Shown in pieces: positions 2,744 through 47,604 of a DNA stretch of 64,000 nt. The position numbers and the translations under genes were made by a program. How positions within the stretch are numbered: position 1 is the first letter of the stretch; each line of letters opens with the position of its first letter. Under the pieces are notes generated by a model that saw only the letters and a list, made by a program, of their open reading frames with translations, was not told the origin of the DNA and searched no databases. The stretch comes from Gryllotalpicola ginsengisoli DSM 22003 (GTDB taxonomy: Bacteria > Actinomycetota > Actinomycetes > Actinomycetales > Microbacteriaceae), in NCBI RefSeq assembly GCF_000419445.1, contig NZ_AULK01000001.1, positions 496,001 to 560,000 on the forward strand. The letters are read 5' to 3'.

Positions 2744-2803
2744 CTCAGCTGCCCGATCCTCAGCTGCCCGATCCTCAGCTGCCCGATCCTCAGCTGCCGG
2801 ATC
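2744..2803. repeat. 15-bp tandem repeat, 4 copies
   Basis: Four direct copies of CTCAGCTGCCCGATC start at 2744, 2759, 2774 and 2789; the last differs by one base (GCCGGATC). Each unit contains the palindrome CAGCTG. The last copy includes the TGA stop codon of the minus-strand thioesterase, so the array looks like repeated duplication of that gene's 3' end into the convergent spacer. Confidence 0.85.
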
Positions 2804-3289
2804 CGCGGCGGAACCGGACCGGCTCGCCGACGTACGGCTCCCACGCCGCTCGCTCCGAGTCCGTGATGCGCCGGGGCCGGCCGGTGGCCGCGTCGACGAG
2901 CACGAGGGTCGTCGCCGCCCGGGCGTACAGGGTCTTCTCCTTCGCCGTCACCGGCGAGTACACCTCGTAGAACACCTCGATGCTGGCGCCGCCGATGCGG
3001 CCCACCCAGAGCTGGATGTCGAGCGGCGCGCGCATGAACGGCACCTGCGCCAGGTACTCGATCTCCTGGTGCGCCATCACGGTCAAGGTGCCGGCGCCCG
3101 GCTTCGAGTCGAGCACGGCCGTGTCGGCGAAGCGGCCCACGTCGTCGCCGTCGTGGTCGGGGTCGCCGGCCCAGAACGCCTGCACGCGCGCGTCCTCGAA
3201 GAAGCGCAGCATGGCGACGTTGTTGACGTGCCCGTACGCGTCGAGGTCGGAGAAGCGCATGACCGTGGGGACGTGGATGCGCTCCCCCA

Positions 3290-32125: not shown

Positions 32126-32785
32126 GTGACTTCGACGAGACACGACCGGCCCAGCAGCCTCGCCGCGCGACGCGTCGGGGTGATGCTCGCGGTCGGAGCG
32201 GTCGTTGGGGTCGGCACGGGGCTGCTCTCCTCGTGGTGGTACGCCGGGGTCGTCGGCTGGATCGCGGCCTGCACGGTGTACACCCTGTGGGTCTGGCTGC
32301 ACCTGTACCGGATGGACTCGGATGCGCTGCGCGACCACGCCACCCGGGAGGACCCGGGCATCGTCGTCGGCGACCTGCTGATCATCGGAGCGAGCATCGC
32401 GTCGCTCGGCGCGGTGGCGATCATCCTGCTGCGCGCCAGCCACGACCAGGGGGCCGTGCAGGCGGTGTCGGCGGCCGTCGCGCTGGTGAGCGTCGCGCTC
32501 TCGTGGTTCCTCGTGCACACGCTGTACGCGCAGCGGTACGCGCGCGAGTACTACGGGCACCCCGAGGGCGGCATCGACTTCCCGTCGGAGGAAGACGAGG
32601 ACCCGGTCTTCACCGACTTCGCATACCTGTCCTTCGACCTCGGCATGACGTACCAGATCTCGGACACGACGCTGCGCTCGCGCAAGCTGCGGGCGATCGT
32701 GCTGCGGCACACGCTGCTGTCCTACCTGTTCGGCACGGTGATCCTCGCCTCGACGATCAACCTCGTCGTCGGCCTCGGCAGCTGA
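32126..32785 (+). CDS. DUF1345-family membrane protein
   Basis: This 219-residue protein has about five membrane helices. The central part has VHTLYAQRYAREYYGHPEGG and DPVFTDFAYLSFDLGMTYQI, the hallmark of DUF1345, which is related to small potassium-channel-like membrane proteins but of unknown function. The GTG at 32126 has GGGAG about 11 nt upstream. The gene ends 22 bp before a 16-bp direct repeat that opens the repeat array. Confidence 0.85.
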   Translation: MTSTRHDRPSSLAARRVGVMLAVGAVVGVGTGLLSSWWYAGVVGWIAACTVYTLWVWLHLYRMDSDALRDHATREDPGIVVGDLLIIGASIASLGAVAIILLRASHDQGAVQAVSAAVALVSVALSWFLVHTLYAQRYAREYYGHPEGGIDFPSEEDEDPVFTDFAYLSFDLGMTYQISDTTLRSRKLRAIVLRHTLLSYLFGTVILASTINLVVGLGS

Positions 32786-32807
32786 CGGGCGGCGCGGCCC
32801 GGCGGCC

Positions 32808-32823
32808 CGGGGCGGAGGCGCTA
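32808..32823. repeat. 16-bp direct repeat, left copy
   Basis: CGGGGCGGAGGCGCTA is repeated exactly at 33138-33153, 330 bp away, on the other side of the array. The right copy carries the stop codon of the minus-strand DUF3054 gene, so the left copy looks like a duplicated gene end. Confidence 0.85.
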
Positions 32824-32842: not shown

Positions 32843-33107
32843 ATTCGTCACTTTCTGCGCGCGATCGGCGGTGCGGGAGCACAGTTCGACGAATCATCCG
32901 TGCTCGCGCGAGCCATTCGTCACTAATGGCGCAGCGTCGGCCCAGACAGAGCACGAATCGACGAACCGCCGGCCCTGCAGGTCATTCGTCACGAATGGTC
33001 CCCCGGTCGACCATGGCAAGCACAATTCGACGAATGGCCGGCGACCGGGGTGGCGAGTCGTCGATAGAGGCGCGAGACCGGGCCTGGCGCAGCACAAATC
33101 GACGAAT
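32843..33107. repeat. BIME-like array of ATTCG/CGAAT dyads, four 69-72 bp units
   Basis: This array fills the only gene-free gap above 300 bp. Core A (ATTCGTCAC, best form ATTCGTCACGAAT) starts at 32843, 32915, 32984 and, degenerate, 33056. Core B (TTCGACGAAT, often after AGCACAA) starts at 32885, 32957, 33026 and 33098. Core B is the reverse complement of ATTCGTCGA, so the cores alternate in orientation. A to B is always 42 bp; B to the next A is 30, 27 and 30 bp. Sequence between cores is not conserved. The layout resembles bacterial interspersed mosaic elements between convergent gene ends. No transposase is nearby. Confidence 0.85.
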
Positions 33108-33137
33108 GGGGAGCGGAGCAGGGGCTGGCAGACGTGC

Positions 33138-33153
33138 CGGGGCGGAGGCGCTA
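33138..33153. repeat. 16-bp direct repeat, right copy
   Basis: Exact second copy of CGGGGCGGAGGCGCTA. Its last three bases (CTA) are the stop codon of the minus-strand DUF3054 gene. Confidence 0.85.
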
Positions 33154-33600
33154 CTGCCGCGCGCGCTCGGAGGCCCGGGTCACGGCGGCCCGGCGGGCGC
33201 GGCGGCGGATCAGCGGCGCGACGAGCGCCCGCCACCCGAGCAGGAACACGCCGAGCACGATCGATGCGACGACGACGAAGCTCGTCTCGACGCCCTGCTC
33301 GCTCGCGACCCGCAGCAGCATGCCGATCGCGACGGCGGCGACCCACACCGGCACACCGGTGCGCAGCAGCGCCATCGGGCGCCGCCAGGCGAGCGACACG
33401 GCCCAGCCGAGCAGCGCGCCGACCAGGAACGGCCACGCCGTCTGCATCACCCCTGCGACGCCGAGGTCTTCGCCGTGGCTGACGCGGCCGATCACCACGA
33501 AGAGCAGCACCAGCACCACGTCGAGCACGATCGACAGGAACACCCAGCGCTGCGGGTCGTCGGTCAGGGGATCGGGGCGGGCGGCGGGCGAAGAACTCAT
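33151..33600 (-). CDS. DUF3054-family membrane protein
   Basis: This 149-residue protein has four predicted membrane helices and a basic C-terminus (RRRARRAAVTR). VLDVVLVLLFVVIGRVSHGED and the following GVMQTAWPFLVG segment match DUF3054, an actinobacterial and archaeal family of unknown function. A weak -10 (GAGGAT) and GGGAG lie just before the ATG at 33600. Its stop codon is in the 16-bp direct repeat flanking the dyad array. Confidence 0.82.
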   Translation of the reverse strand: MSSSPAARPDPLTDDPQRWVFLSIVLDVVLVLLFVVIGRVSHGEDLGVAGVMQTAWPFLVGALLGWAVSLAWRRPMALLRTGVPVWVAAVAIGMLLRVASEQGVETSFVVVASIVLGVFLLGWRALVAPLIRRRARRAAVTRASERARQ

Positions 33601-47550: not shown

Positions 47551-47604
47551 CCCTCCGGCAGCACCCAGCCCTCCGGCAGCACCCAGCCCTCCGGCAGCAC
47601 CCGG
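47551..47604. repeat. 18-bp tandem repeat, 3 copies
   Basis: CCCTCCGGCAGCACCCAG occurs twice exactly and a third time ending CCCGG, between the convergent ends of the EXPERA-like gene and the desulfurase gene. Nothing else is visible in that 178-bp spacer. Confidence 0.85.

What the first reader, a model, noticed from the sequence alone, without database searches (positions are those of the whole stretch)
32843..33107. BIME-like array of alternating ATTCG/CGAAT dyads between convergent genes
Two cores alternate: ATTCGTCAC(GAAT) at 32843, 32915, 32984 and degenerate at 33056; TTCGACGAAT at 32885, 32957, 33026 and 33098. A-to-B distance is exactly 42 bp in all four units (four helical turns). 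B-to-A is 30, 27 and 30 bp, so units are 72, 69 and 72 bp. Spacers are unrelated. Each core is a half-site dyad (ATTCG-N-CGAAT or ATTCGT-N-ACGAAT). It resembles REP/BIME arrays, but I know no such family in this group. Alternatives are an operator array or a decayed coding repeat, since all intervals are multiples of three. Within the cores, third codon positions are not the variable ones.
Basis: partly seen in the sequence, partly recalled or inferred. Interest (0 to 1): 0.72.

Follow-up and report, generated by a model that had tools for sequence, protein, structure and literature searches.

The report
Dispersed paired repeats with own nuclease
A short paired repeat scattered about 60 times through this bacterium's genome also flanks one gene for a DNA-cutting enzyme, and related enzymes in many other actinobacteria are each flanked by their own such repeat, which points to an undescribed repeat-and-nuclease partnership that works like, but is unrelated to, the known REP/RAYT systems.

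Summary
Window 32843-33107 holds four tandem 52-bp dyads (ATTCGTC-N38-GACGAAT). The family is dispersed: about 60 units at 26-28 loci in this 2.94-Mb Microbacteriaceae genome, usually as tandem pairs. No RAYT/Y1 transposase exists in nine genomes tested. One gene lies between two arrays of the same dyad (G000:C2:127194-128105). It encodes an AbiEi-like N-terminus fused to a Vsr/DUF559/EDxHD-type nuclease domain. Of 27 homologues in eight Microbacteriaceae genomes, 22 carry a shared repeat on both sides (0 of 216 control intervals). It is usually a 50-65-bp dyad, different for each paralogue and similar between close relatives. Several of these dyads are dispersed through their own genomes. Sister species have an empty site at the window locus, so the array was gained. 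Arm variation is not compensated, half-sites have two boxes, and linkers between units fall in helical steps, so the dyads look like binding sites for a protein dimer rather than hairpins. Best reading: REP-like elements whose partner is an AbiEi-Vsr nuclease. The association is well supported; binding is inferred; spread driven by the nuclease is plausible but not shown. I found no earlier description in the open-access library.

The parts
32843..32894 (.). dyad unit 1 (ATTCGTC...GACGAAT, 52 bp)
32915..32966 (.). dyad unit 2 (right arm GACGAAC)
32984..33035 (.). dyad unit 3
33056..33107 (.). dyad unit 4 (left arm AGTCGTC)
32807..32823 (+). left copy of 17-bp direct repeat CCGGGGCGGAGGCGCTA bounding the gained segment
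   Evidence: empty site
33137..33153 (+). right copy of the 17-bp direct repeat; includes the stop codon of the DUF3054 gene
32126..32785 (+). left neighbour, DUF1345 membrane protein (219 aa), convergent
33151..33600 (-). right neighbour, DUF3054 membrane protein (149 aa), convergent; directly abuts the left neighbour in sister species

Best explanation
The array is one locus of a dispersed, REP-like family of 52-bp dyads whose partner is an AbiEi-Vsr nuclease encoded elsewhere in the genome (G000:C2:127194-128105), whose gene lies between two arrays of the same dyad. Proposed mechanism: the AbiEi-like N-terminal part recognises each two-box half-site (ATTCGTC-N7-GC). Two molecules sit on the inverted half-sites, and further dimers stack on neighbouring units in helical phase. 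The C-terminal Vsr/EDxHD-type nuclease acts at or near the variable centre. Breaks or nicks repaired with dyad DNA, or the nuclease gene itself moving as a dyad-flanked unit, then spread and maintain the dyads in tolerated sites, chiefly 3' gaps between convergent genes. Shown: dispersal, two-sided flanking, own dyad for each paralogue, association with protein phylogeny, recent gain at the window locus, absence of Y1. Inferred: binding by this protein. Hypothetical: nuclease-driven spread.
For: Dispersed family. Y1_Tnp absent in nine genomes. Nuclease gene flanked on both sides by the array family in G000 and by ATTCGT-type dyads in G226, G125, G263, G179 and G055; in G263 the only two exact pattern hits of the genome flank this gene. 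Two-sided shared flank match >=17: 22/27 homologues vs 0/216 controls; also 16/30 of the best loci of a phylum-wide sample and a homologue in a Coriobacteriales MAG (L187, 77-bp match). Flanking dyads dispersed in their own genomes, e.g. the L161 dyad at 20+ places in G179. Protein-dyad association: Mantel 5/2000. AbiEi models match the N-terminus and MTES_1575/DUF559 the C-terminus; AF2 pLDDT 92.7; I-Bth0305I catalytic domain hit by profile and by fold (weak). Arms not compensated. Linkers helically phased. AbiEi proteins bind 23-bp inverted repeats, and Rv2827c four in tandem (PMC7319586). I-Bth0305I dimerises on a target of nearly 60 bp (PMC3943268). Empty site.
Against: No cleavage, binding or mobility was observed. 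The window array's 17-bp direct repeat is not shared by other arrays, so there is no general target-site duplication. The array-flanked G000 protein has DYEG where relatives have EYEG, so its nuclease may be weakened. Five of 27 homologues score below the cut-off of 17, two of them (L147, L155) with visible but diverged dyads. ATTCGT-type dyads go with three separate protein clades, so specificity is not a simple function of phylogeny. The Foldseek hits have E > 0.01, and no AbiEi structure appeared among the 50 rows shown. The Pfam match to the G000 protein is below the curated cut-off.
Confidence: 0.6

Rival explanations
1. The dyads are dispersed operators or architectural sites of an AbiEi-like DNA-binding protein (autoregulation, chromosome organisation, insulation at 3' ends); the nuclease domain is used for something else, such as defence, and does not spread the dyads.
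For: Helical phasing; AbiEi proteins autoregulate through tandem inverted repeats; uncompensated arms.
Against: The dyad also lies downstream of the nuclease gene; different dyads at orthologous sites of related species; in-frame copies in menD and cydDC; most copies lie between convergent genes, away from promoters.
Confidence: 0.22
2. The dyads are MITEs moved by an unrelated transposase; the nuclease genes are passengers or have repeats as incidental neighbours.
For: Many copies and an empty site.
Against: 22/27 nucleases flanked on both sides by a shared repeat specific to the paralogue vs 0/216 controls; no target-site duplications; each nuclease has its own dyad.
Confidence: 0.06
3. The dyads are bidirectional intrinsic terminators between convergent genes.
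For: 14/20 L161 dyads in G179 and 13/26 intergenic arrays in G000 lie between convergent genes; perfect inverted arms in some families.
Against: Arms do not covary; copies in divergent gaps and inside genes; tandem dyads in helical phase; dyads on both sides of the nuclease gene.
Confidence: 0.08
4. REP/BIME elements mobilised by a RAYT transposase.
For: Similar layout: inverted units, tandem clusters, 3' gaps.
Against: No Y1_Tnp in nine genomes while five of 14 control genomes ring; no GTAG tag; no hairpin conservation.
Confidence: 0.02

Closest known systems
REP/BIME (REPIN) elements with RAYT (TnpA-REP, Y1 HUH) enzymes, PMC2817692
   Same: Dispersed short inverted units at 3' ends, clusters, enzyme gene flanked by its own repeats, repeats that differ between enzymes
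   Different: Enzyme is an AbiEi-Vsr-like nuclease, not Y1; dyads of 50-65 bp with separate half-sites; no GTAG head; no stem conservation
CGTC-tagged REPs, PMC3733652
   Same: Dispersed dyads without a RAYT; CGTC occurs in the core
   Different: CGTC REPs have 8-9-bp stems, 4-5-nt loops and a CCA tail, mostly in Alphaproteobacteria; here the arms are 38 bp apart
AbiEi / Rv2827c antitoxins of type IV AbiE systems, PMC7319586
   Same: N-terminal part matched by AbiEi models; binding to paired or tandem long inverted repeats
   Different: C-terminal nuclease instead of antitoxicity domain; no AbiEii toxin among the neighbours checked; sites dispersed genome-wide
EDxHD homing endonuclease I-Bth0305I, PMC3943268
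   Same: Related Vsr-type catalytic domain; dimer on a target of nearly 60 bp; selfish spread by cleavage
   Different: Not intron-encoded; many non-coding dyads dispersed; AbiEi-like recognition part

Membership tests
REP/RAYT | Y1 HUH (PF01797) enzyme in the genome | tested here: not met
   0 of 9 genomes; 5 of 14 control genomes ring
REP/RAYT | GTAG-type head and base-paired stem kept by compensatory change | tested here: not met
   no GTAG head; arms vary independently
REP/RAYT | enzyme gene flanked by two copies of the dispersed repeat | tested here: met
   (with a different enzyme)
CGTC-REP | CGTC tag, 8-9-bp stem, 4-5-nt loop, CCA tail | tested here: not met
Rfam RNA families | match to a curated RNA family | tested here: not met
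   none at E <= 1 in six loci
AbiE type IV toxin-antitoxin | AbiEi-like DNA-binding part | tested here: met
   11 of 23 members match an AbiEi model, over residues 9-210; the G000 copy itself has no match
AbiE type IV toxin-antitoxin | adjacent AbiEii toxin (DUF1814) | tested here: not met
   neighbours are nucleoside phosphorylase and adenosine deaminase (G000), MFS and aldo/keto reductase (G179)
Vsr / MTES_1575 / DUF559 nuclease superfamily | conserved catalytic-type D...EY.G..H motifs and family match | tested here: met
   activity not testable here; G000 copy has DYEG and is below the Pfam cut-off
homing endonuclease (EDxHD) | cleavage of empty sites and homing | not testable with these tools
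   only profile and fold similarity and one empty site
MITE (DDE transposon derivative) | target-site duplications and a cognate transposase | tested here: not met
   no direct repeats above control except the window's 17 bp and one at L140; a cognate transposase was not searched for beyond Y1

The most novel reading that the evidence does not exclude
A new class of bacterial repeat-nuclease system, widespread in Actinomycetota: each AbiEi-Vsr fusion nuclease has its own rapidly changing, dispersed 50-65-bp dyad family and spreads it by cutting and repair, a convergent counterpart of RAYT/REPIN without HUH or DDE chemistry.
Probability: 0.45. Interest if true: 0.93.

Novelty: new variant of a known kind. 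Interest (0 to 1): 0.85.

Why it matters
REP families without a RAYT have had no known enzyme, and the origin of many short intergenic palindromes is open. A second, unrelated nuclease class that is flanked by, and changes together with, its own dispersed dyads would make spread of short repeats by a nuclease testable. It would also give a likely role to large numbers of actinobacterial proteins now annotated only as DUF559 or AbiEi-like, and offer natural nuclease-site pairs with about 20-bp half-sites.

Tried and rejected
RAYT/Y1 transposase. RNA families. Hairpin or cruciform maintained by covariation. Coding repeat with period three. General target-site duplication. Phage origin: ten viral contigs match the dyad pattern, one place each and none as an array of exact units; not followed. 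Literature for the core sequence, MTES_1575, DUF559 with inverted repeats and Vsr-like with palindromic repeats: nothing relevant. The pan-genome pattern scan also returned single chance-like hits in unrelated phyla, which were ignored. The first start and strand assignment of the homologues was wrong for minus-strand loci and was redone.

Full report
OBSERVATION. The four tandem units are at 32843-33107 as described. Each A core plus the following B core forms a 52-bp dyad, ATTCGTC-N38-GACGAAT. The pattern is absent from shuffles and occurs 26 times exactly in the 2.94-Mb genome, with none for the reversed control. A sequence-only profile built from 39 units finds about 60 units at 26-28 loci, nearly all as tandem pairs or longer.

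ANATOMY. Within a unit each arm has two conserved boxes, ATTCGTC and GC, separated by seven AT-rich, variable bases. The variable bases of the two arms are not correlated (observed identity 2.55 against 2.84 in shuffles, p = 0.88), so the unit is not kept as a hairpin. Linkers between consecutive units are 20 bp in most arrays and otherwise 17-18, 30-32, 38-41 or 51 bp. The non-20 linkers cluster at helical steps (p about 0.001; small sample). This fits independent half-sites bound by a protein on one face of the DNA.

PLACEMENT. By an ad hoc codon-usage gene caller, 13 of 28 loci lie between convergent genes, 7 between codirectional and 6 between divergent genes, and 2 inside genes in frame: menD, and the linker of a cydDC fusion (gene names by my reading of the sequences). 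The convergent share exceeds the window background of 26% (p = 0.007). At the window locus two sister species have the flanking DUF1345 and DUF3054 genes directly adjacent (G053 stops overlapping, G178 about 19 bp apart), so about 365 bp were gained in this genome. The gained segment is bounded by a 17-bp direct repeat, but other arrays lack one. The sister menD gene has a single diverged dyad-like sequence in the same linker (the reading is mine).

THE PARTNER GENE. RAYT-type Y1 transposases are absent from nine genomes. The only single gene found between two arrays in G000 is at C2:127194-128105. Of its homologues in seven other Microbacteriaceae genomes, one each in G226, G125, G263, G179 and G055 also lies between ATTCGT-type dyads; in G263 these are the only two exact pattern hits in the genome. 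The other paralogues are flanked by different dyads of about 40-75 bp. A shared flank match of 17 or more was seen in 22 of 27 homologues and in 0 of 216 random intervals of similar spacing. One search with 20 such dyads showed that several are dispersed through their own genomes. Twenty places with the L161 dyad in G179 show 23-bp conserved arms at constant spacing; 14 are convergent, 6 codirectional and none divergent, and the main variable arm position is not compensated.

RELATIONSHIPS. Close protein relatives tend to have similar dyads (Mantel 5 of 2000). At what look like orthologous chromosomal sites of different Leifsonia-group species the dyads can differ completely (L148/L149 vs L150; L154/L167 vs L158 vs L171), so the gene persists while its repeat turns over. 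A Coriobacteriales MAG has 12 homologues; one is flanked on both sides by a 77-bp dyad, and another lies directly upstream of a tandem pair of ATTCGTC dyads. In a phylum-wide sample 115 of 297 genomes have a homologue, and 16 of the 30 fetched loci pass the flank criterion.

THE PROTEIN. PADLOC AbiEi models match the N-terminal part of 11 of 23 members, and Pfam MTES_1575 or DUF559 the C-terminal part of most. Conserved D237, E/D248, Y249, G251, D264 and R267 fit a Vsr-like nuclease. The profile hits 3hrl and the homing endonuclease I-Bth0305I (3r3p) in the PDB, and the AlphaFold2 model (pLDDT 92.7) matches 3r3p with target TM 0.56-0.68 at weak E-values. MTES_1575 was described as a Vsr-family REase (PMC3710099). 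AbiEi binds two 23-bp inverted repeats, and Rv2827c binds four in tandem with 13-bp gaps inside each pair (PMC7319586). I-Bth0305I dimerises on a target of nearly 60 bp (PMC3943268). These two precedents together give the proposed geometry of a dimer on a 52-60-bp dyad.

INTERPRETATION. The layout is that of a RAYT flanked by REPs (PMC2817692) with a different enzyme. Filing it as REP/RAYT fails because Y1 is absent and the stem is not conserved; working like it remains the best reading. The repeat-nuclease association is strong evidence by itself; binding is inferred from precedent; spread by cutting and repair is a hypothesis with plausible rivals, chiefly a regulatory or architectural role. 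The literature library is open-access only, so an earlier description elsewhere cannot be excluded.

Noticed in passing
G000:C2:127047-128105 (L126:2448-3506): The open frame of the array-flanked nuclease runs on into the downstream array and stops inside its first dyad; its EYEG motif reads DYEG.
   Followed up: partly
L134 (G000:C4:87654-87796) and L122 (G000:C1:215538-215679): Two-unit elements lie in frame inside menD and in the linker of a cydDC fusion, adding about 48 residues; both have 53-bp units and 30-31-bp linkers, unlike most intergenic copies.
   Followed up: partly
G267 (query 394-469): Many L167-type dyads in G267, although its nuclease at the apparently orthologous site (L158) carries a different dyad; possibly remnants of an earlier specificity.
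   Followed up: no
L067, L073, L074, L085, L089, L096 (Leifsonia): Long arrays of the 13-bp palindrome ATTCGTSACGAAT at about 40-bp pitch, in some species alternating with ATTCGTGSCACGAAT.
   Followed up: partly
L093, L076, L095 (Coriobacteriales MAG S14M_St_47): Tandem pairs of 53-bp dyads ATTCGTCCG..ACTACC..GGTAGT..CGGACGAAT at 79-bp pitch, same two-dyad layout in a distant class.
   Followed up: partly
G440:C1:2607895, G165:C3:799046, G592:C34:392092, G345:C1:5354577, G544:C1:58751: Homologues with one stop codon inside the match, suggesting frequent decay of these genes.
   Followed up: no
L053 (G053:C1:102494) and five other places in G053: A 56-bp ATTCGTCAC-based repeat family without an identified flanked nuclease in that genome.
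   Followed up: no
window 2744-2804 and 47551-47602: Perfect or near-perfect tandem repeats (15 bp x 4.1; 18 bp x 2.9), unrelated to the finding.
   Followed up: no
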